Source: a virus. Taken from it: a stretch of DNA of 59,728 nucleotides. The notes beneath the pieces were generated by a model. It worked only from the letters and a program-made list of their open reading frames with translations, made no database searches and was not told the DNA's origin. The DNA is taken from IMG/VR virus record IMGVR_UViG_3300048925_000679, positions 1-59,728 of that record. One strand, given 5' to 3'. Position numbers and translations under genes: made by a program. Shown here piece by piece: positions 20,577 through 52,724 of this stretch. Numbering within the stretch: the first letter of the stretch is position 1; every line of letters begins with the position of its first letter.

Positions 20577-20803
20577 CCGAGTTGCCCGAGCCCTTACGGT
20601 CGCAGATAGCAGCCATGATGGCGCAGCGTGACCTAGAAGTTGAGCGTCAACGCGCTGACCGAATGCGTGAGGACAGCAACAAACTCTATGAACTCCGCGG
20701 CTGGTTGCGCTTGTGCGCCGATGACCCAGCTGGTCATGAAGAGTTTTACCGGTGGGCATGTCACTACATCTTCGGCGACGAACCTCCCAAGGAGGACTCA
20801 TGA
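20573..20803 (+). CDS. Small charged helical protein (76 aa)
   Basis: GTG start. Residues 8-45 are a charged helix (RDLEVERQRADRMREDS) and the end is aromatic (FYRWACHYIFGDE). It directly precedes the glycosidase-like gene and carries its GGAGG ribosome site. Function unknown. Confidence 0.6.
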   Translation: MTELPEPLRSQIAAMMAQRDLEVERQRADRMREDSNKLYELRGWLRLCADDPAGHEEFYRWACHYIFGDEPPKEDS

Positions 20804-21678
20804 TCGGTATCAATCAGTCGAATCTGGTGCAGCTCACTCAACCTGACCTTGATCGGGTGTGCACGCAGATCGCCGCCTACGGGTTCTCTAGTGTGCGGTT
20901 CGCTGTGGATTGGGGTGTCCTGTCCAGCTTCGTCGGGGCGGTGAACTATACGCCGGTACAGCGGGCGGCTGATGCCCTGAAGAGGGCTGGGTTGTCGGCG
21001 TTGCCGGTGTTGGGGATCCATTACCCGTTCGTGCATTCCCCGACCTCGTTTGGGAAGTTCACGGCCCGTGTCGTCAGCATTTTCGGGGCACCGGCGTATG
21101 AGGTGTGGAATGAGCCGAACCTATGGACGTTCGGGATCGGTTCGCCGGCCACCTACCTGTCGTACCTGCGCGCCGCGGCCCCGATCATCCGCGACTCGGG
21201 GGCGAAGGTGATCTCCGCTGGCCTGGCGGCTTACCCGGATCGGAAGGTGCTGTGGCTGCGGCAGTACTCGCCGGTGACGTGGCTGGCCGGCCTGTACGCC
21301 GCCGGGGAAACCGGGGACTATGACCTGTTCGGATACCACCCCTACGCGCTGACGGTGGACGAGAAGTGGGCCAATCCCGACAGTCTCCCGTACGGGATCG
21401 AGATGATCGGCGCTCTCGACGCTCTCCGTACCCAGCACAACGATTCTCGCCCGTATGCGTTCACTGAGATCGGCTACGACACAGCCCGCATCAGCATCCC
21501 CACCGCAGCCCAATGGCTACCCCAACAATCCACCCTCCTCGCCACACACACGGCTCATCAGTGGCTGTTCTGCTGGCGAGACACTATCGGGGATGGGGGT
21601 AAGTACGGGTTGGTGGACGCCAATAACCAACCCAAAACCGTGTTGTTCGACGCAGTCAAACCACTAATAGGCCAATGA
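20800..21678 (+). CDS. Clan-A glycoside hydrolase-like protein (TIM barrel)
   Basis: A 292-residue protein with the hallmarks of a clan GH-A barrel (families such as 5 or 39): SSVRFAVDW (strand 2), EVWNEPN at about 101-107 with acid/base E105, YHPYA near 179-183, and ETTE-type nucleophile in FTEIGY (E223), followed by HQWLFCWRD. It would cleave a glycan. There is no signal peptide or linker, so it is cytosolic or released at lysis. Its place in the early operon, far from the tail and lysis genes, is unusual. The substrate cannot be told; cell-wall or capsular glycans are inference. Confidence 0.82.
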   Translation: MIGINQSNLVQLTQPDLDRVCTQIAAYGFSSVRFAVDWGVLSSFVGAVNYTPVQRAADALKRAGLSALPVLGIHYPFVHSPTSFGKFTARVVSIFGAPAYEVWNEPNLWTFGIGSPATYLSYLRAAAPIIRDSGAKVISAGLAAYPDRKVLWLRQYSPVTWLAGLYAAGETGDYDLFGYHPYALTVDEKWANPDSLPYGIEMIGALDALRTQHNDSRPYAFTEIGYDTARISIPTAAQWLPQQSTLLATHTAHQWLFCWRDTIGDGGKYGLVDANNQPKTVLFDAVKPLIGQ

Positions 21679-23147: not shown

Positions 23148-23181
23148 ACGCCCCGCCTTCAAGGTTGGGGCGTTTCCTTTT
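23148..23181 (+). terminator. Intrinsic terminator of the early operon
   Basis: ACGCCCC (23148-23154) pairs with GGGGCGT (23167-23173), with a further short inner stem, followed by TTTCCTTTT. This is the clearest Rho-independent terminator in the left half and marks the end of the operon that starts at 2456. Confidence 0.8.
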
Positions 23182-23279
23182 GAAAGGGCTCAGCATCGCG
23201 CTCTGCGCCACTGGCCCCTCACTCTTAGCTCGGAACCTGCTATTCGAGGCGTTTTCACTGTTAGCTGCGGGAGGTTGTG

Positions 23280-23453
23280 ATGCCGCACCCCACGAACCGG
23301 CTCGACTCCATGATCCTGGCCGCAAAACTGGAGTTGGATGCTGCCCGCAAGGATGGTGACGCCACCCGTATCTGTAGGGCTGTGGCGGTGTTGAACGGCC
23401 GTTTGGATCGTCGTATCCGTGAGCACGCTGAAACATCCCGGGAGAACGCATGA
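23280..23453 (+). CDS. Small helical protein (57 aa)
   Basis: ATG after GGGAGGTTGTG. Charged, helical (LDSMILAAKLELDAARK), no metal site. First gene after the early terminator, so it must have its own promoter or read-through. Function unknown. Confidence 0.55.
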   Translation: MPHPTNRLDSMILAAKLELDAARKDGDATRICRAVAVLNGRLDRRIREHAETSRENA

Positions 23454-23614
23454 GCCTCGTCGACAAGCTGATCGACCGCATCGCGGACCGTGTGGTGGAG
23501 AAGCTCGAAGGCCGTCATCCCGTCCAGAGTGTGCACTACGGGACCATAGTTAAGGATGTCACTGAGCATTTGGAACGACAGGCCGCGATGCCGTCGAGCC
23601 TTATCAGTCGGTAA
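23450..23614 (+). CDS. Small protein (54 aa)
   Basis: ATGA overlap with the previous gene. The N-terminus forms an amphipathic helix (LVDKLIDRIADRVVEKLEG). It leads into the glycan-modification genes. Function unknown. Confidence 0.55.
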   Translation: MSLVDKLIDRIADRVVEKLEGRHPVQSVHYGTIVKDVTEHLERQAAMPSSLISR

Positions 23615-23622
23615 TTCGAGCG

Positions 23623-24159
23623 ATGGATTACAGCCTCGGTCTCCGCATCGAGACTGGCGATCATTACGCTCTTCTGCAGCACATCCTGACCCTCGATCCC
23701 CCAGGGATGGCGCTGGAATTCGGTGTCGGTGGAGGCGAAAGCACCCGACTGATCGCCGAACACATGCCGGTCCTCGGGTTTGATTCCTGGCTTGGCCTCC
23801 CCGAAACGTGGCGACCAGGATTCCCCAAGGGCATGTTCGCCGCCATGCCCCCCGCGATCCCCAACGCGGACTTCGTTGACGGCTGGTACGAAGACACCCT
23901 CCCCGATGCTCTCGACGGCATCGGTGATGTCGGTTTAGTTCACATCGACTGCGACCTCTACTCCAGCACCCACACCGTCCTCGCCGCCCTGCGTAAGCAT
24001 CACATCCTCACCCCAGGGACATTCGTCGTCTTCGACGAATGGCACTCCTACCCGGGGTGCGAGGACCACGAACAGAAAGCGTGGCGTCAACACGCCACCG
24101 GAATCGAATGGCAAGTCATCGGCCACGGGCACGAAAGCTGGGGCATCCGAATTGTCTAG
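23623..24159 (+). CDS. SAM-dependent O-methyltransferase, TylF-like
   Basis: A 178-residue class I methyltransferase. The SAM motif is LEFGVGGGEST (31-41), with FDSWLGLPE at 53-61 and the acidic HIDCDLYSS at 107-115 that in TylF/macrocin-type sugar O-methyltransferases binds metal. It is shorter than the macrolide enzymes. With two glycosyltransferases after it, a role in methylating a sugar on virion proteins or a surface glycan is likely. Confidence 0.82.
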   Translation: MDYSLGLRIETGDHYALLQHILTLDPPGMALEFGVGGGESTRLIAEHMPVLGFDSWLGLPETWRPGFPKGMFAAMPPAIPNADFVDGWYEDTLPDALDGIGDVGLVHIDCDLYSSTHTVLAALRKHHILTPGTFVVFDEWHSYPGCEDHEQKAWRQHATGIEWQVIGHGHESWGIRIV

Positions 24160-25027
24160 AACCATCGTCTTCGTCTTCGCCGGCCGCCAACCCAACATCG
24201 AAGTCGCACTCCCGTACTACCAGCGCATCATCGACCAACACCCGGACGTCGAACTGCACATCTGGGATCTGGCCCGCGACCCGCAAGACTCGGCATACCT
24301 ACGAACACTGTCGGACCGGTTCACCATCCGCACCGACTTTTACGAAGGCACAGGCCGCGCCACAAGCGGACAAACCCAAGTTTGGAAGCACTACGCCACA
24401 CCCGAATACCGGGACACCACTTTCGTCAAACTCGACGACGATGTCCTCTTCCTGGAAACCGACCATTTCGACGCGTTCGTCCAGGCAGCGCACGACAACC
24501 CGAAACACGTCACAGCTGCCCTCACCATCAACAACGGGGCGAGCACACGGCACATCCCTGACCTGTGGGATGGATTCCAAAAGCTCCGCCCCGCCATCCC
24601 CTCCGATGCCACATACCTGAACGCCGAGATGGCCACACTCTTGGCGGTACACAGGTCACCCGAGTACGCAGAGATGTGCCACCGCTGGTTCTTCGACAAC
24701 TGGCGCACCATCACCGGCAAGCCCACAAACCTCATCGTCACCGACGACTGGGTGTCCATCAACGCCATCACCTACTCGTGGGAGATGGGTTGCAGGATCG
24801 CCGCACTCATCGGACGCCAGCATCCACCCCGGGTCGCTGGACGCGTCTTCTCCCGCCGCCACCGCGTCGGAGATGAAGGCGCCGCCAACATTCTTCCGCG
24901 GTTCATCCATACCGGATTCGTCGCCGGCCATTTGAACTTCGGCCCACAAGTCAAGGCCATGGCGCCAGACCTGCTCGACGAACTACGCAAGCACTACGCC
25001 GACATCGCGCAGCAGTACCTCGCATGA
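24152..25027 (+). CDS. Glycosyltransferase (GT-A fold-like)
   Basis: A 291-residue enzyme. VFVFAGRQPNIEVALPYYQR at the start and KLDDDVLF (DxD about 95-97) are the donor-sugar-binding features; a second acidic block VTDDWVS lies at about 200. TTG start at 24152, overlapping the methyltransferase by 8 bases, so the two are coupled. It transfers a sugar to an unknown acceptor; phage structural protein is a reasonable guess from the known glycosylation of some mycobacteriophage virions. Confidence 0.8.
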   Translation: MSRTIVFVFAGRQPNIEVALPYYQRIIDQHPDVELHIWDLARDPQDSAYLRTLSDRFTIRTDFYEGTGRATSGQTQVWKHYATPEYRDTTFVKLDDDVLFLETDHFDAFVQAAHDNPKHVTAALTINNGASTRHIPDLWDGFQKLRPAIPSDATYLNAEMATLLAVHRSPEYAEMCHRWFFDNWRTITGKPTNLIVTDDWVSINAITYSWEMGCRIAALIGRQHPPRVAGRVFSRRHRVGDEGAANILPRFIHTGFVAGHLNFGPQVKAMAPDLLDELRKHYADIAQQYLA

Positions 25028-25713
25028 CCGCAGCAGTCATCATCCCCTTCCGAGATCGCGGACGAGACCCACTCAGGCAAGCCAACCTCAACCGCACACT
25101 CGAACACTGGTCCGGATGGGACGTCCACGTCGTAGACGACGGACGCCAAGGCGACGCCCAATTCAACCGACACAAGGCCTACAACACAGGCGCCACCCTC
25201 ACAGACGCCGACATCCTCATCTACGCCGAATCAGACATGCTCATCGACTTCACCCAAATCCATCAAGCGATGCGACTAGCCGAAACCCACGGCCTCATCG
25301 TCCCCTTCACCGAACGACACGAACTCTCACCCGACTCCTCCGAACTCGTCCGAGAACACAAGATCAAGCCCCAAGACGGACGAGCAGACGTCATCAAACC
25401 CAAACCACGACGCATCGGCGCCATCAACGTCATCTCCCGCCAAACCCTCACCGCAGTAGGGCAATGGGACGAACAGTTCGAAGGATGCTGGTGGGACGAC
25501 CGATCCATGCACCTAGCATTCGACATCTGCGCCGGACCCACCCAATGGATCGACGGACCATCCTGGCACCTCTGGCACCTCCCCGGATACCAAGGCGCAC
25601 ACCTCACCGGAGCCGACAAACAAGCAACAGCACGCAACAAGCTCCGCTTCCGGCAGTACCAACGAGCACGCACACCGGACCAAATCCGGCGACTCACGCA
25701 CGGAATCAAGTAA
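25024..25713 (+). CDS. Family 2-like glycosyltransferase
   Basis: A 229-residue enzyme beginning AVIIPFRDRG, with HVVDDG at 35-40, AESDM (DxD-type) at 68-72 and FEGCWWDDRSMHLAF at about 152-166, the acceptor-side motif of GalNAc-transferase-like enzymes. ATG overlaps the preceding gene by 4 bases. It ends 8 bases inside the convergent regulator gene. The strand is markedly C/A-rich. Confidence 0.83.
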   Translation: MTAAVIIPFRDRGRDPLRQANLNRTLEHWSGWDVHVVDDGRQGDAQFNRHKAYNTGATLTDADILIYAESDMLIDFTQIHQAMRLAETHGLIVPFTERHELSPDSSELVREHKIKPQDGRADVIKPKPRRIGAINVISRQTLTAVGQWDEQFEGCWWDDRSMHLAFDICAGPTQWIDGPSWHLWHLPGYQGAHLTGADKQATARNKLRFRQYQRARTPDQIRRLTHGIK

Positions 25714-26209
25714 TGGTCTGGGCTAACCGAGCGCGGACTTCAGCCATCATCGTTCTTGCAATATGCCCACGCTTCTGAGTGGAAGCATCCGTCGGGCACC
25801 GCGCATCACGTTCTTCAACGAATGAACGTTGCCATAAAAGATCTGCCATATCCGCAAGCTCGTCACTGGTGATACCAAGCTTGCGGGCCACGCGATGCTC
25901 CTGCTCTGTGCCTACTTCTTTAACATCAGCAAGAATTACTGGTGATCCCAGCAGGAATGGCGCGAACTGATCATCGACTAACTCGTGCAGCGGGATTGGT
26001 CGTCCATGTACTTCGCCAATAGCTGCCGCGATCATGACGAGGTTGTCGATCGTAGGGGATGCTCGGCCAGCTTCGAGGTCGGCAATCCGGCCAGTGCCCC
26101 AGCGGGCGCCTTTGCGGCGTGCGGCAGTAGCCACTTGATCAAGAGTGGCCGTTCCGCGGAGCCGTCTGACATTTGCGCTGAAGGCAGCGTGCGCAGGCCG
26201 AGTATTCAT
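25706..26209 (-). CDS. XRE-family regulator with its own operator
   Basis: A 167-residue HTH protein. Residues 10-70 are the DNA-binding domain (VRRLRGTATLDQVATAARRKG, then IADLEAGRASPTIDNLVMIA). The rest is helical and acidic. The start at 26209 is chosen because a consensus TATAAT lies 7 bases upstream and the dyad covers it; a longer frame reaching 26587 lacks coding character. It converges on the glycosyltransferase gene with an 8-base overlap. It may repress itself and possibly the packaging region or another phage. Confidence 0.78.
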   Translation of the reverse strand: MNTRPAHAAFSANVRRLRGTATLDQVATAARRKGARWGTGRIADLEAGRASPTIDNLVMIAAAIGEVHGRPIPLHELVDDQFAPFLLGSPVILADVKEVGTEQEHRVARKLGITSDELADMADLLWQRSFVEERDARCPTDASTQKRGHIARTMMAEVRARLAQTIT

Positions 26210-26246: not shown

Positions 26247-26347
26247 GCACTTGCCCCCCAGGGGGACTCACCCTCACCCCCGCCTCCCGCCAGCCTCTCA
26301 CGGCATAGGCCGATGTGTGTGTGACTGAGGGGTAGGGGGGAAACCGA
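26247..26347. other. Noncoding junction before packaging genes, possible cos region
   Basis: About 100 bases with C-rich then G-rich tracts (GCCCCCCAGGGGG at about 26252; GGGGTAGGGGGG just before the HNH start). In the virion arrangement this is where the left and right genome ends would join. No cos family sequence is recognised, so the cos assignment is only positional. Confidence 0.3.
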
Positions 26348-26680
26348 GTGCCTTTCGCTTCTACGACGATCCGGAATCGGCGGCGCGCTGAGGTTCGTAG
26401 CCGCGATGGGGACGCTCCGTGTGCGCTTCAGATCACGGCTGATTGTCAGGCGTTGGGTGGTGAGATCGATTATCACGCCCGGCCGCCGCATCCTCGGTCG
26501 TTCGAAGTGGATCATGTTGTGTCTTCTGACGAGGCGCAGCGCCTGGGTTGGTCTGAGGTTGAGGCTGACGCTTTGGATAACTGCCAAGGTGTGTGCCGGC
26601 AGTGCAATCGGGTCAAATCTGATGGTGTGACACCAGTTGCGGCAGTCCGTCCAACATATGTGAATCCACGCTTCATCTGA
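26348..26680 (+). CDS. HNH endonuclease of the packaging module
   Basis: A 110-residue HNH protein with a C-x7-C knuckle (CALQITADC), EVDHV, an Asn (LDNCQG) and CRQCNRVK. Small HNH proteins encoded beside terminase in cos phages activate specific cos cleavage. GTG start after GGGGGG. This placement supports cos-type packaging. Confidence 0.8.
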   Translation: MPFASTTIRNRRRAEVRSRDGDAPCALQITADCQALGGEIDYHARPPHPRSFEVDHVVSSDEAQRLGWSEVEADALDNCQGVCRQCNRVKSDGVTPVAAVRPTYVNPRFI

Positions 26681-31569: not shown

Positions 31570-32514
31570 ATGGCAACTCTTGCAACCGGCTCCTTCTCAC
31601 TGCCCAAGCACTTGGTGTCGGGCGTGTGGCAGAAGGCGCAGGGCCAGTCCGTACTGGCCCGCCTGTCCGCTGCTGAACCCCAGGAGTTCGGAGAGCAGCA
31701 GTACATGACCCTGACCGCGCCGCCTCGCGGTGAGGTCGTCGGTGAAGGTGCGCAGAAGAGCGAATACACTGCGACCTTCGCGCCCGTGACCGCGATCCCC
31801 CGCAAGGTGCAGGTCACTCAGCGGTTCAACCAGGAAGTCAAGTGGGCTGACGATTCTCGTCAGCTCGGCGTCCTGAAGACGATGGCCGACCTGTCCGGTG
31901 TCGCTCTGGGGCGTGCACTCGATCTGATTGCCATCCACGGCATCAACCCCCTGACCGGCGCTCTCATCTCGGGTTCGCCGGCCAAGATCCTCGACAGCAC
32001 CAACGTTGTGGAACTGACAGCGTCGACGGCGGACACCCCCGACCAGGTCATTGAGGAAGCTGTCGGCCTGGTGCTCGACGACGGCATCTCCCCGGATGGG
32101 ATCGCACTCGACAACGGGTTCTCGTTCTCACTGGCGACTCAGCGGCACCCCACCACCGGGCAGAAGCTGTACCCGGAGTTGGGATTCGGCACCGATGTCA
32201 GCTCGTTCTTCGGGCTGAAGGGTGCAGTGTCGGACACGGTCCGCGGCGGCCCGGAGGCCGTGACCGCCTCGACCGGCGTTTACCGCAGCACCAACCCGCA
32301 CATCAAGGCCATCACCGGCGACTTCAGCGCATTCCGGTGGGGCGTTCAGGTGAACATCCCGCTGGAGCTGATCGAGTTCGGTGATCCCGACGGCCTCGGT
32401 GATCTGAAGCGTCAGAACCAGATCGCGATCCGTTCTGAGGTCGTGTACGGCATCGGCATCATGTCCACGGACGCGTTCGCCGTGGTCAAGGACGTCGACA
32501 ACGACGGCTCCTAA
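31570..32514 (+). CDS. Major capsid protein (HK97 fold)
   Basis: 314 residues after scaffold, of the length typical for actinophage capsids without a delta domain. Motifs such as PPRGEVVGEGAQKSEY and the C-terminal IAIRSEVVYGIGI match the E-loop/A-domain pattern of HK97-fold capsids. The ribosome site is GAAAGG. Confidence 0.92.
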   Translation: MATLATGSFSLPKHLVSGVWQKAQGQSVLARLSAAEPQEFGEQQYMTLTAPPRGEVVGEGAQKSEYTATFAPVTAIPRKVQVTQRFNQEVKWADDSRQLGVLKTMADLSGVALGRALDLIAIHGINPLTGALISGSPAKILDSTNVVELTASTADTPDQVIEEAVGLVLDDGISPDGIALDNGFSFSLATQRHPTTGQKLYPELGFGTDVSSFFGLKGAVSDTVRGGPEAVTASTGVYRSTNPHIKAITGDFSAFRWGVQVNIPLELIEFGDPDGLGDLKRQNQIAIRSEVVYGIGIMSTDAFAVVKDVDNDGS

Positions 32515-34190: not shown

Positions 34191-34784
34191 ATGGCCGATT
34201 CTAAGAACGTTCTGGCCGCCTCCATCGCGGAGGATAACGAATCGTTTTTCAGTGCCCCTCTCGGCACGCCGCTACCCACCGACGCTGTTGAGGTGTTTGA
34301 CACTGACTTCGTTGGGCATGGCTGGCTCGGCGACGAGGGCGTGAAGAACAAGATTCAGCGGGACACCACTGATCATTACGACTTGTCCGGTCAGCTCATC
34401 AAGACCACGCAGGACAAGTACTCCGAGACCGTCACGTTGGTGTTCTGCGAAACGAACCCTGAGGTGCTGAAGACGATCTTCGGTGACGACAACGTCGATG
34501 TGGACTACACGTCCGGGCATTTGAAGATGACGGTCCGCCACGACGACAAGCCACTTGACCGCAAGTCGTTCCTCGTGCGGCTCGTGGAGGGCCAGAAGAC
34601 GACCCTGCATGTCATCCCTGAGGGTCAGGTCACTGAGATCGAGGAGATCCCGTACAGCAGCACCGATCTGACGGTGTATGGGGCGACGGTGAAGTGCTAC
34701 AAGCCGGCCGATGGTGAGCAGCCGGACAACCCGAAGGCCGTGAACACGTACTACGACTTCGCGGATGTTCTCGACGGGTCATAA
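34191..34784 (+). CDS. Major tail tube protein
   Basis: 197 residues, beta-rich, with paired patterns such as YDLSGQLIKTTQDKYSETV and LVFCETNPEVLKTIFG that are typical of siphophage tube proteins. It precedes the tail assembly chaperones, the standard location. ATG after GAAAGGGG. Confidence 0.88.
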   Translation: MADSKNVLAASIAEDNESFFSAPLGTPLPTDAVEVFDTDFVGHGWLGDEGVKNKIQRDTTDHYDLSGQLIKTTQDKYSETVTLVFCETNPEVLKTIFGDDNVDVDYTSGHLKMTVRHDDKPLDRKSFLVRLVEGQKTTLHVIPEGQVTEIEEIPYSSTDLTVYGATVKCYKPADGEQPDNPKAVNTYYDFADVLDGS

Positions 34785-48731: not shown

Positions 48732-49178
48732 GTGCCTGATCTTCCAAGTTATGCGGTGTCCTGGAACGTTTTCGACATTCCGGGGACGGTGCAGGCGGGA
48801 GAGTTGACGCGGCTCGCGTTGGCGAAAGCCCGCGCAATCTTCACCTCCAATCTGGAGCCGACGAGTTTCCTCACGTTCGGTGGGGATTCGCATCGTCCTC
48901 CGCACATCGTGTACGCGAGTGTGAATAATGCTGGCGCCCTGGTCGATAAGGATGGGGCCACTCTCAAACTGTTGGCGAATGATCCGGGTTTGTCGGTGAC
49001 GGGGATTCAGTGGCGGGCGACGATTGTGTTGCCGGTTCCTGGCCCGTTGCAGCAGTTGGAGATCGGCCCGTGGGACGCCCCCGAGGATGGGGATGTTCTG
49101 TTGTTGTCGTCTGTGGTTCCGACTGTCGCGCTTCCTCCGCTATCTGGTGGCGGCGGCATTATCGATGGGACACCGTAA
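48732..49178 (+). CDS. Tail-region protein (148 aa)
   Basis: GTG start. Beta-rich, ending with a Pro/Gly segment. One base overlaps the SGNH tail gene. Function unknown. Confidence 0.6.
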   Translation: MPDLPSYAVSWNVFDIPGTVQAGELTRLALAKARAIFTSNLEPTSFLTFGGDSHRPPHIVYASVNNAGALVDKDGATLKLLANDPGLSVTGIQWRATIVLPVPGPLQQLEIGPWDAPEDGDVLLLSSVVPTVALPPLSGGGGIIDGTP

Positions 49179-50995
49179 TGAGCACACCGATCGTCAAGTA
49201 CCGCCTAACGCCCTACCAGAGGACCGCCGCGGCGTTGGCCACGGAGAACGCGATCCCTTTACAGGGGGAGCGGGTCCGGGAAACCGACACGGGCCGCGAG
49301 AAGACCGGCGACGGATCAACGCATTACAATGACCTTCCGTACAACGAAGCTTTAGTCGAGTACGCGAACCAAGCTGCGTTTACTGGAACTGGGAAGCCCG
49401 GCAAAATCTATGTGGCGTTGGATACTGGTGATTCGTTCCGGTGGTCGGGGTCGGCGTATGTGCGGATCAGTGACCGTGTCACCGCCTCAGGCATCACAGA
49501 CTCTGGAGCGGTGGGACGGTCGGTTGTTCAGGCTGCAACCCAGGCGGCGGCGAGAATAGCGACGGATTCCGGGATGGCGCAGCGCGCCAGGTACGGCGCC
49601 CGAACCGTAGTCGATGGTGATTCGATCACCATCCGCCCCGGCACCGTATCCACATGGAACAGTTCCCCCGGTGGTTGGTCGATGGAGATGGCCCGCCTCT
49701 CCAATGGGCGAATTGACTTGCTGTACAACGCTGGCGTGTCCTCCACGGGGATCACGACCCGAATCTCAAACTTCCCCACGAAAGTCGCCCCGTACACCCC
49801 GGAGACGGTGCTGCTGGCTAACGGCACCAACGACATGTCCATCATGACCTTGTCGCAGTACCTGACGTATCTGGGCCAGTACTACGACCTGGTGCGCGGG
49901 ATCGGTGCGCAACTGATCCTGGGCGGGATTTACCCGAAGAACGTTGACGTCGATAAGGCGTCCTCGTGGAATGCGGGGATTGTGGATTGGGCGAAAACCC
50001 GTGGCGTTTTGGTAATCCCGTTCTGGGAGTTGGGTGACCCTACGACGGGGGCGTGGCCTTCCGGTTGGTCGACTGATGGTGTGCACCCGGATTACGATTC
50101 GCTGGCGTTCCCGGCGATCGGTAAGTTCGCGTGGCAAGCCGTGCAGCGCGCCTACACGGAACCGGTCGCAGCATCAGCTCGGTATGCCACCGATCCGGGG
50201 GCGTTGCTTACCTGCTTCTTCACTGATCTGACTGCGACGATTACTGGTGCGGCGACGATCACGGGGATTGTGTCGACGACGGGGACGTTGGCGGCGGGGG
50301 ATTACACGTATCGGGTGGTGGCCGGTAACCATTACGGGCAGGTGTCCGGGGTTGCTGATTCCACGATTACTTTGTCCGCTTCGACGGGGGCGACGATCAC
50401 CTCCGGGGCGTCTGGTTCGTATACGACTCGGCGGGTGTTCCGCCAGTCACCAGGCGATACGACGTTCTATTACATCGGGAACATCAATGTTGCTGGTACG
50501 CAAACGTTCACCGATAACGGTATCGCGAACGGGTACGCGTACCGGGCTGGTGATACCACCAGGTATCCGACGGGGATGATCACTGGCGGTTGGCAGGACG
50601 CGCAAACGTTAGCGTACGGACCTCCTGTTCGGGACGGAGCTTCGGAGGGGATTCGGGGCAACATTTTCCGGGGCGCCCGCTGCGAAGGGTCCGCTGTGTA
50701 CCGGTCGGACCGCTTCCTCATCACCGGGTTAACGGCCGGGCAGGTGGTGACGGTGAGTGTGAAGTGTAAGGGCGCGAACACGGCCGGGCAGGATGCGTTG
50801 CAGATGCGGTATTTCAACCCTGCCGGTGACACGCAGATCGATGTGGTGGCTTTGGGGGCTACTCGGTTCGGCACTGACTGGGGATTGATTTACGGGAGGA
50901 CGACAGTGCCGACCGGATCGGATCGGGTGTATGTGTGCCTTGAGGGCACTGCTACCAATCCGTTTAGCGACTGGGCTGAATTGAGGGTGTTCTGA
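49178..50995 (+). CDS. Tail protein with SGNH hydrolase domain (605 aa)
   Basis: An N-terminal tail-attachment part (1-110, LTPYQRTAAALATENAI), then an SGNH esterase at about 140-325: VVDGDSITI (Ser149), NAGVSSTG, LLANGTND, and DGVHPD (Asp300, His303). The C-terminal 270 residues are two beta domains that may bind glycans. It probably removes ester groups, for example acetyl, from surface glycan at adsorption. Catalytic Ser-Asp-His are all present. Confidence 0.85.
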   Translation: MSTPIVKYRLTPYQRTAAALATENAIPLQGERVRETDTGREKTGDGSTHYNDLPYNEALVEYANQAAFTGTGKPGKIYVALDTGDSFRWSGSAYVRISDRVTASGITDSGAVGRSVVQAATQAAARIATDSGMAQRARYGARTVVDGDSITIRPGTVSTWNSSPGGWSMEMARLSNGRIDLLYNAGVSSTGITTRISNFPTKVAPYTPETVLLANGTNDMSIMTLSQYLTYLGQYYDLVRGIGAQLILGGIYPKNVDVDKASSWNAGIVDWAKTRGVLVIPFWELGDPTTGAWPSGWSTDGVHPDYDSLAFPAIGKFAWQAVQRAYTEPVAASARYATDPGALLTCFFTDLTATITGAATITGIVSTTGTLAAGDYTYRVVAGNHYGQVSGVADSTITLSASTGATITSGASGSYTTRRVFRQSPGDTTFYYIGNINVAGTQTFTDNGIANGYAYRAGDTTRYPTGMITGGWQDAQTLAYGPPVRDGASEGIRGNIFRGARCEGSAVYRSDRFLITGLTAGQVVTVSVKCKGANTAGQDALQMRYFNPAGDTQIDVVALGATRFGTDWGLIYGRTTVPTGSDRVYVCLEGTATNPFSDWAELRVF

Positions 50996-51936
50996 TGCCA
51001 ACGATGTATGCCACGGCCGCGGAGTGGGCCGGGCTGAATCTGTTCGTCCCCGCCAACACGATTGGTGAGGAGTCCGATACCGGTAAGCGGAAGTCCGGTG
51101 GGACGGCAGGCAACTACTGGAATTCGTTGTCGTACACCAGCACCGCGTCGGGATCGTACAACTTCGACACGGTGCCCAGCGGTTCGGCGGTGGCCACTGC
51201 GGCGACTGCCACGACTTTGGCGGTTCGTGACTCGAACGCAAACCTCTCGGCGGATGGGTTCATTCCCTCTTCAACATCCACAGCGACGGCTGCGGGAACA
51301 ACAACGCTGACGGTGGATTCCACTGAGCTGCAGTTCTTCACCGGCACCACCACGCAGACAGTTCTGTTGCCGACAACGGGTGTGCCGGTGGGGCGACTGT
51401 TTGTCATCTTCAACACCTCCACCGGGTTGGTGACGGTTCAATCCTCGGGTGCGAACACCATTGGGTACGCCCCGGCTTCGGGTGGGATTCTGGTGGTGCA
51501 GGCGAACACCGCGACCCCGACAACGGCGGCGCATTGGACTGTCCGGTCGTATGCTGCGACTACCAGTTACACGTCTGGTGTGATCAGTGTGGCATTGCGG
51601 GACAACAACAACATCCTGTTCGCCCGGGCTCTGATTGCGGCGTCAACCACAACTGCCACCGCGGCCGGTACGACGACGTTGACTATCTCCAGCCCGACGA
51701 TTCAGATCTTCACGGGGTCGACGACGCAGACGATCACTTTGCCGACGACGACGGTGATTTTGGGGCATCGGATCACGTTCATCAACAAGTCGTCTGGTGC
51801 CCTGACGGTGAACTCTTCGGGTGGGAACTTGGTGGCGACGGTGGCCGGTGGGGCGACGGCCGAGGTGATGGCGAATCAGTCGACACCGACGACGGCCGCG
51901 CACTGGTCGGTGCTATCCAACGGTGGCACGGCTTAG
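50995..51936 (+). CDS. Tail fibre protein with two ~105-residue repeats
   Basis: Residues 75-184 and 199-307 repeat the same pattern: (L/V)A(V/L)RDxN, then STxTATAAGTTTLT, FTG(T/S)TTQT, and TPTTAAHW. The first 60 residues may attach it. Repeated beta domains of this sort act as fibre modules and receptor-binding spacers. ATG shares one base with the previous TGA. Confidence 0.75.
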   Translation: MPTMYATAAEWAGLNLFVPANTIGEESDTGKRKSGGTAGNYWNSLSYTSTASGSYNFDTVPSGSAVATAATATTLAVRDSNANLSADGFIPSSTSTATAAGTTTLTVDSTELQFFTGTTTQTVLLPTTGVPVGRLFVIFNTSTGLVTVQSSGANTIGYAPASGGILVVQANTATPTTAAHWTVRSYAATTSYTSGVISVALRDNNNILFARALIAASTTTATAAGTTTLTISSPTIQIFTGSTTQTITLPTTTVILGHRITFINKSSGALTVNSSGGNLVATVAGGATAEVMANQSTPTTAAHWSVLSNGGTA

Positions 51937-52724
51937 GTTGGGCAGTTGACCTGGGTGTGGCCGAACGGTGCCGCCGTCGTGCACGGCACAGGCGGACTCA
52001 GCTGATCAACAATCAGCGCCCCGATCTTCTCGGCAAGCCACACATGCCCCGCATCGTTCGGGTGAATCCCATCCTCCCCGATCAACTCCGGATGCCCGAC
52101 CAGCCAGCCATCAGTGATCGGATCGACCCACACCGCGTGGGCCTTGACCGCTTCAGTTCGGATGATGTCGCGGGCCTCCAACACCTCGGGTGGGGGTTCC
52201 CCGACAGGCCACGCAGGACCGATCACCAACAATGATGCAGTCGGGGCTTTCACTTTGATCGCCGCCAACGTGCCATCCACAGCAGCAGGTAGATCCTGCA
52301 GGTGCTCGGTGTTGTTGCGCGACCCGAATACCACCACCAGTCGGGAGTTCGACTTCACCACCTTCGGTACCTCCGCGGCGAAGTCGGTTCCGTTGTGTCC
52401 GGGTTTCCCGTACCCGGATGCACCCTCAGCGCCTTTGAGGATCGACACCGGATGGTCCGGGTTGAGTTGCCTCTCGACCAGTGCGGGCCATCCGTGATCG
52501 CCTTGCCCGCCCATCCCTGACCCGCTGGTGTAGGAGTCGCCGATCACCGACACGATCGCCGCCGGCACTTCCGGTGGGGGTGGGGTGTACCGGGATTCGT
52601 ATGCCGGTGGTGTCTTCGGGTACAGGAACATGGCTGTCCCGGCAATCACCGCGGTAACTGTGAGACCGGCGAGGACCAAGTATTTCAGCCGGGATGTCTC
52701 TGTGGAGTTACGTCGGTGGCCCAT
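51933..52724 (-). CDS. Membrane-anchored SGNH hydrolase, lysogenic-conversion candidate
   Basis: A 263-residue protein. Residues 13-35 are one membrane helix, 37-55 a Pro-rich linker, then an exported SGNH/GDSL esterase: VSVIGDSYTSG (Ser64), FGSRNN (134-137) and DGIHPNDAGH (Asp218, His221). It probably cleaves acyl esters on the cell envelope. It is leftward within a rightward late operon and has its own -10, so it could be expressed from the prophage. It ends by overlapping the fibre gene's stop. Confidence 0.84.
   Translation of the reverse strand: MGHRRNSTETSRLKYLVLAGLTVTAVIAGTAMFLYPKTPPAYESRYTPPPPEVPAAIVSVIGDSYTSGSGMGGQGDHGWPALVERQLNPDHPVSILKGAEGASGYGKPGHNGTDFAAEVPKVVKSNSRLVVVFGSRNNTEHLQDLPAAVDGTLAAIKVKAPTASLLVIGPAWPVGEPPPEVLEARDIIRTEAVKAHAVWVDPITDGWLVGHPELIGEDGIHPNDAGHVWLAEKIGALIVDQLSPPVPCTTAAPFGHTQVNCPT

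What the first reader, a model, noticed from the sequence alone, without database searches (positions are those of the whole stretch)
23623..25713. Methyltransferase plus two glycosyltransferases as a compact glycan-modification cassette
Three overlapping genes encode a TylF-like O-methyltransferase and two GT-A/GT2-like enzymes, located after the early terminator and before the packaging genes. Some mycobacteriophages glycosylate their capsids and tails to evade host antibodies or for stability. A methylated sugar on virion proteins is a testable prediction; modification of a host surface glycan is the alternative.
Basis: partly seen in the sequence, partly recalled or inferred. Interest (0 to 1): 0.75.

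Follow-up and report, generated by a model that had tools for sequence, protein, structure and literature searches.

The report
Phage cassette likely decorating its coat
Three overlapping genes in this mycobacterial prophage probably attach a methylated sugar chain to the last amino acid of the phage's own head and tail-tube proteins, a coat decoration already reported in a few related phages, but here without the enzyme that two of those phages need.

Summary
At 23623-25713 lie three overlapping, intact genes: a short TylF-like sugar O-methyltransferase (MT, 178 aa) and two GT-A glycosyltransferases (GT1, 291 aa; GT2, 229 aa). They follow a terminator and end 0.6 kb before the phage's cos end. 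Homologous MT-GT1-GT2 sets occur in Cornie, Babsiella, cluster O (Corndog group) and M. abscessus prophages. Virion glycosylation is published for Che8, Corndog and Myrna. The window lacks the GT25-type enzyme (Che8 gp110/Corndog gp38) reported as essential there; Cornie and Babsiella lack it too. New evidence for a virion acceptor: the window's major capsid and tail-tube proteins are the only 2 of 600 ORFs ending in ...DGS. Across unrelated capsid and tail-tube families, a terminal [GADE]S goes with these glycosyltransferases (capsid 18/21 versus 1/25; tail tubes 39/39 versus 0/11 in a second set). In cluster I1 phages with nearly identical coat proteins, GT1-GT2 and a GT25 cassette replace each other between the same flanks. 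Best reading: O-glycosylation of the C-terminal serine of capsid and tail tube, with MT capping the glycan. No biochemistry was done. A known kind of system, in a variant lacking gp110.

The parts
23623..24159 (+). MT: short TylF-like, SAM-dependent sugar O-methyltransferase, 178 aa
   Evidence: Pfam TylF 1.9e-10; phrog_6608 3.5e-74; profile hits CalS11, NovP, MycF; conserved SAM and acidic metal-site motifs
24152..25027 (+). GT1: GT-A glycosyltransferase with DDD motif, 291 aa
   Evidence: phrog_4447 1.8e-108; AF2 pLDDT 93.8; best fold match COLGALT1 (GT25), Z 13.5; invariant D95-D97
25024..25713 (+). GT2: GT-A glycosyltransferase, beta-1,4-galactosyltransferase-like, 229 aa
   Evidence: phrog_1721 6.5e-98; AF2 pLDDT 93.6; best fold match beta4GalT1, Z 17.3; invariant E69, D71, D158, D159, H182
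23154..23172 (+). terminator-like hairpin with T run that separates the cassette block from upstream genes
   Evidence: sequence
23277..23614 (+). two small overlapping ORFs (23277-23453, 23450-23614) between terminator and MT; role unknown
31570..32514 (+). major capsid protein, proposed acceptor
   Evidence: phrog_10 major head protein 3.6e-40
32503..32511 (+). C-terminal Asp-Gly-Ser of the capsid; Ser314 is the proposed O-glycan site
   Evidence: correlation
34191..34784 (+). major tail (tube) protein, proposed acceptor
   Evidence: phrog_117 major tail protein 4.2e-42
34773..34781 (+). C-terminal Asp-Gly-Ser of the tail tube; Ser197 is the proposed O-glycan site
   Evidence: correlation
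26307..26680 (+). left end of the virion genome (cos region) and the HNH gene that opens the packaging block
   Evidence: alignment to base 1 of F-like phages; HNH phrog_338 1e-21

Best explanation
The cassette makes a methylated O-glycan on the phage's own virion. GT1 and GT2, both GT-A and presumably metal- and nucleotide-sugar-dependent, transfer sugars to the C-terminal serine that ends the major capsid and tail-tube proteins (...DGS). One of them must start on the protein, because the gp110/gp38-type GT25 enzyme is missing; GT1 is my guess. MT then O-methylates a sugar hydroxyl as an optional cap. Shown here: intact genes, folds, homology, and linkage of such glycosyltransferases to a C-terminal Ser tag. 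Inferred: the acceptor in this phage, enzyme order, sugar identity and methyl position.
For: Same gene trio in Cornie, Babsiella, phiGD20-1 and Catdawg, and GT1-GT2 next to the Minerva capsid gene. Relatives in Corndog and Che8, whose virions are reported glycosylated (PMC12363180; PMC4351075). Only capsid and tail tube end DGS in the window. Terminal [GADE]S: capsids 18/21 GT+ versus 1/25 GT- (non-redundant 7/9 versus 1/12), tail tubes 20/20 versus 3/17, second tail-tube set 39/39 versus 0/11. Cluster I1 swap: nearly identical coat proteins with MT-GT1-GT2, GT1-GT2, or a GT25 cassette between the same flanks; MT cleanly absent in one. Fold matches include protein-acting enzymes COLGALT1 and GalNAc-T2. 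MT matches sugar O-methyltransferases.
Against: The enzyme reported essential in Che8 and Corndog is absent. L291, L294 and L295 have the GTs but untagged capsids (tail tubes tagged); cluster J capsids lack the tag. A few GT- records have a tag on one protein (L257, L258, L283, L287). The correlation is not tree-corrected, and [GAD]S was widened to [GADE]S after inspection. No direct evidence from this phage.
Confidence: 0.72

Rival explanations
1. The enzymes modify a host cell-surface glycan or glycolipid (lysogenic conversion, for example to block superinfection), and any virion effect is incidental.
For: It is a prophage, and TylF-like methyltransferases and GTs also act on glycolipids (general knowledge). 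The cassette follows a terminator and precedes cos, away from the structural genes in the linear virion genome.
Against: Does not explain the capsid and tail-tube tag correlation or the swap with GT25 cassettes. In clusters O and J the homologues sit inside the structural operon. Lytic cluster O phages carry them. Hardly any are found outside phages.
Confidence: 0.1
2. Virion glycosylation, but on other sites (internal residues or minor tail proteins), the terminal Ser tag being a structural feature that merely travels with these phage lineages.
For: The correlation is not tree-corrected; some GT+ capsids lack the tag (L291, L294, L295, cluster J).
Against: The tag recurs in unrelated capsid and tail-tube families, is present on both proteins of one phage, and is absent from close relatives without GTs.
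Confidence: 0.12
3. The cassette is a non-functional remnant: without the GT25 enzyme nothing starts the glycan.
For: No gp110/gp38 homologue in the window; that enzyme is reported essential in Che8 and Corndog.
Against: All three frames and catalytic motifs are intact. GT25-less phages keep the terminal tags (window, Cornie, Babsiella, L333). The cluster I1 swap shows GT1-GT2 standing in for the GT25 cassette.
Confidence: 0.06

Closest known systems
Corndog/Catdawg (cluster O) gp35-gp38-type modification genes
   Same: Same order MT-GT1-GT2; window proteins 60%, 41% and 54% identical to Catdawg gp33-gp35; Corndog virion glycosylation reported (PMC12363180)
   Different: Cluster O adds a GT25-type gene and sits between portal and protease; the window lacks GT25 and sits before cos
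Che8 (cluster F1) gp108-gp110
   Same: MT domain 55% and GT2 52% identical; same genome position before cos; coat proteins end TGS/DGS
   Different: Che8 MT is fused to another GT domain, GT1 is absent, and gp110 (GT25) is present
Cornie gp98-gp100 and Babsiella gp75-gp77
   Same: Same three genes, order, place before the end-of-genome HNH gene, no gp110; 50-63% identity; tagged coat proteins
   Different: Different capsid families; glycosylation not reported for them as far as the held literature shows
CalS11, NovP, MycF sugar O-methyltransferases (TylF family)
   Same: Profile similarity over the metal-binding and catalytic part
   Different: The phage MT is about 80-100 residues shorter; acceptor unknown
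Beta-1,4-galactosyltransferase 1 (GT7)
   Same: Fold Z 17.3, 2.4 A over 180 residues; PDB profile E 0.001
   Different: About 15% identity, ESD instead of DVD, below Pfam cut-offs

Membership tests
Mycobacteriophage virion-glycosylation systems (Che8/Corndog kind) | homologous GT/MT genes encoded by the phage | tested here: met
Mycobacteriophage virion-glycosylation systems (Che8/Corndog kind) | glycan on capsid and tail-tube subunits | not testable with these tools
   needs MS of virions; terminal Ser tag on both proteins is indirect support
gp110/gp38-dependent subtype (GT25) | a gp110/gp38 homologue | tested here: not met
   tblastn of Che8 gp110 and its relatives finds nothing in the window; also absent from Cornie, Babsiella and Minerva
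TylF/MycF sugar O-methyltransferases | SAM motif and acidic metal-binding residues | tested here: met
   Pfam TylF above cut-off; conserved motifs; CalS11/NovP/MycF hits
TylF/MycF sugar O-methyltransferases | full-length match to the family model | tested here: not met
   only profile positions 176-241 of 264 matched by Pfam TylF; protein is 178 aa, so it is called TylF-like
GT7 for GT2 | GT7 fold and sequence signature | tested here: inconclusive
   fold strongly similar, sequence below Pfam cut-offs
GT25 for GT1 | GT25 sequence signature or close fold | tested here: inconclusive
   best fold match COLGALT1, Z 13.5, but other GT-A folds at 11-13; no Pfam GT25 hit; hhalign with the gp110 family prob 2.3%

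The most novel reading that the evidence does not exclude
A gp110-independent route to virion glycosylation: GT1-GT2 (with or without MT) modifies the same C-terminal ...GS tag that GT25-containing cassettes use. The tag is a portable C-terminal acceptor motif acquired by unrelated capsids and tail tubes, standing where some relatives carry an extra C-terminal tail-tube domain.
Probability: 0.5. Interest if true: 0.62.

Novelty: new member of a known kind. Interest (0 to 1): 0.45.

Why it matters
In the literature I could read, virion glycosylation is named for only three mycobacteriophages. A sequence rule (terminal Ser tag plus glycosyltransferase cassette) would let glycosylated virions be predicted from genomes. 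Cassette swaps in nearly identical cluster I1 phages offer ready natural experiments on which enzyme starts the glycan and what the methyl cap does.

Tried and rejected
Remote homology between GT1 and the gp110 family: not significant (hhalign prob 2.3%); between GT2 and gp110, and GT1 and GT2: none. GT1 region about 97-161 resembles type II dehydroquinases by profile (E 5e-4); the model is GT-A and no dehydroquinase is among the listed fold matches, so it was treated as chance or convergence. The primary paper (Freeman 2023, Cell Host Microbe) is not held, so what it says about the C-terminal residue could not be checked; that its glycans are at the C-terminus of capsid and tail tube is from memory of the abstract. 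A plain 'last residue Ser' rule was rejected for capsids because GT- relatives can end ANS beside ANV/ANT. No sigma-70 promoter match between terminator and MT; mycobacterial promoters are poorly covered by that scan, so no inference was drawn. No other glycosyltransferase was found among the window proteins scanned; small ORFs were not all scanned.

Full report
OBSERVATION. The three ORFs are present exactly as described. MT is 23623-24159 (178 aa), GT1 24152-25027 (291 aa, TTG start) and GT2 25024-25713 (229 aa). They overlap by 8 and 4 bases, which suggests translational coupling (sequence). Matches are far above chance: phrog_6608, phrog_4447 and phrog_1721 at 3.5e-74 to 1.8e-108, and Pfam TylF at 1.9e-10. 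Relatives occur in 115-154 phage records per protein, nearly all mycobacteriophages.

CONTEXT. The window is an IMG/VR virus record. Its first gene is an integrase, followed by a repressor-type regulator and an antirepressor: a temperate phage in prophage order. F-like mycobacteriophage genomes align from their base 1 at window 26307. The cassette is therefore the last rightward block of the virion genome, and it lies next to the packaging genes in the prophage. A terminator-like hairpin lies at 23154-23172. Two small ORFs (23277-23453, 23450-23614) precede MT, and a leftward HTH gene follows GT2.

ENZYMES. MT is closest to solved sugar O-methyltransferases: CalS11 (TDP-rhamnose 3'-O-methyltransferase), NovP and MycF. 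Its SAM motif and acidic residues D109, D111, D138 and E139 are conserved among 19 relatives, but it is about 80-100 residues shorter than those enzymes. GT1 models as a confident GT-A fold (pLDDT 93.8) with an invariant DDD motif. Its best structural match is collagen hydroxylysine galactosyltransferase COLGALT1 (Z 13.5, 3.7 A over 220 residues; other GT-A enzymes at Z 11-13). GT2 (pLDDT 93.6) matches beta-1,4-galactosyltransferase (Z 17.3, 2.4 A over 180 residues) and has invariant E-x-D and DD motifs. A shared fold does not fix donor or acceptor.

RELATED CASSETTES. MT-GT1-GT2 in this order occurs in Cornie (L002), Babsiella (L003), phiGD20-1 (L004, MT fused to a GT domain) and Catdawg (L010, between portal and protease). 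GT1-GT2 also lies near the capsid gene of Minerva (L005). Che8 has a GT-MT fusion (gp108), GT2 (gp109) and gp110. The commonest layout among 84 fetched loci is MT-GT1-GT2 plus a gp110-type gene (49); gp110-less layouts are less common (6 MT-GT1-GT2, 8 GT1-GT2; some loci are truncated). The family is almost confined to phages: 4 loci in a collection of 84,980 prokaryote species genomes.

LITERATURE. PMC12363180 states that glycosylated proteins were identified in Che8, Corndog and Myrna and calls Che8 gp110 and Corndog gp38 essential for capsid glycosylation, citing Freeman et al. 2023. PMC4351075 found Corndog gp35-gp38 in infected cells and proposed that they modify the capsid. The primary paper is not held. 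From memory, its abstract places O-linked glycans at the C-terminus of capsid and tail-tube subunits.

MISSING GENE. The gp110/gp38-type enzyme (GT25 by Pfam) has no homologue in the window, nor in the complete Cornie, Babsiella and Minerva records. The window is therefore not a gp110-type system, and another enzyme must start the glycan if one is made.

ACCEPTOR TEST. The window's major capsid (phrog_10) and tail-tube (phrog_117) proteins end ...DNDGS and ...VLDGS. Of 600 window ORFs of at least 40 aa, only these two end DGS, and no other of 18 listed virion-region genes ends GS. Che8, Cornie, Babsiella, Catdawg and phiGD20-1 coat proteins, several of them from different families, end TGS/DGS, EGS/DGS, TAS/DGS, VGS/GDS and AGS/AGS (capsid/tail tube). 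I then collected relatives of four capsid families from IMG/VR and searched 50 whole records for the GT2 and gp110 families. A terminal [GADE]S on the capsid occurs in 18/21 GT-positive and 1/25 GT-negative records (GT-negative records under 35 kb left out; Fisher 8e-9), and in 7/9 versus 1/12 after removing capsids over 80% identical (p 0.002). For tail tubes the counts are 20/20 versus 3/17, and 8/8 versus 1/5 non-redundant (p 0.007). A second collection from one tail-tube superfamily gave 39/39 versus 0/11 (a few records overlap the first set). In 10 of those 11 GT-negative records the tail tube instead carries about 100 extra C-terminal residues. Caveats: relatedness, redundancy of F1 phages, and the tag was widened from [GAD]S to [GADE]S after seeing ...DES in phages of the L181 group.

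EXCEPTIONS. L291, L294 and L295 have both GT families but untagged capsids; their tail tubes end GGGS. Cluster J capsids end in other residues, though their tail tubes end in Ser. L258 has a GS tail tube and no GT found. L108 and L180 are short tagged fragments in which no GT was seen.

NATURAL SWAP. Three cluster I1 phages have tail tubes at least 99.6% identical (...AEDGS). L332/L412 and L333/L413 have capsids about 99% identical to Babsiella's over the part held, ending ...VETAS like it. Between the same flanks (about 95-99% identical), Babsiella carries MT-GT1-GT2; L413 carries GT1-GT2 with MT precisely absent; L412 carries a phrog_1579 glycosyltransferase, a kinase-like gene and a gp110-type enzyme. 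This argues that GT1-GT2 and the GT25 cassette serve the same acceptors, and that MT is an optional later step.

CONCLUSION. Most likely (0.72) the cassette O-glycosylates the C-terminal Ser of capsid and tail tube, with MT capping the sugar. GT1 as initiator is a guess from its protein-acting structural neighbours. A host-surface target (0.1) is not excluded but does not explain the tag correlation. The kind of system is known; the gp110-less variant and the tag rule are the parts that could be new, subject to checking against the primary paper.

Noticed in passing
window 20797-21678 (+): ORF that looks like a retaining glycoside hydrolase (VWNEPN and FTEIGY motifs; weak PslG match E 0.09; Pfam Cellulase E 0.24) with no phage relative found.
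   Followed up: partly
L340-L357 versus L332-L339, tail-tube genes: In one tail-tube superfamily, phages without these glycosyltransferases carry about 100 extra C-terminal residues where GT-positive relatives stop at a short [GAD]S tag.
   Followed up: partly
L413 about 3256 versus L003 2491-3076: Clean absence of the methyltransferase gene in a Brujita-type phage relative to Babsiella, with at least 94-98% identity on both sides: a natural MT knock-out.
   Followed up: partly
window 49010-50995 (+) and 51933-52724 (-): Two GDSL lipase/acylhydrolase genes near the tail region, one of them on the opposite strand.
   Followed up: no
window 25706-26206 (-): Leftward XRE-like HTH gene between GT2 and cos (Pfam HTH_3 E 1.7e-4, below cut-off); it could regulate the late side.
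   Followed up: no
GT1 residues about 97-161 (window 24440-24640): The GT1 profile matches many type II dehydroquinases around their active-site motifs (E 5e-4), although the model is GT-A.
   Followed up: partly
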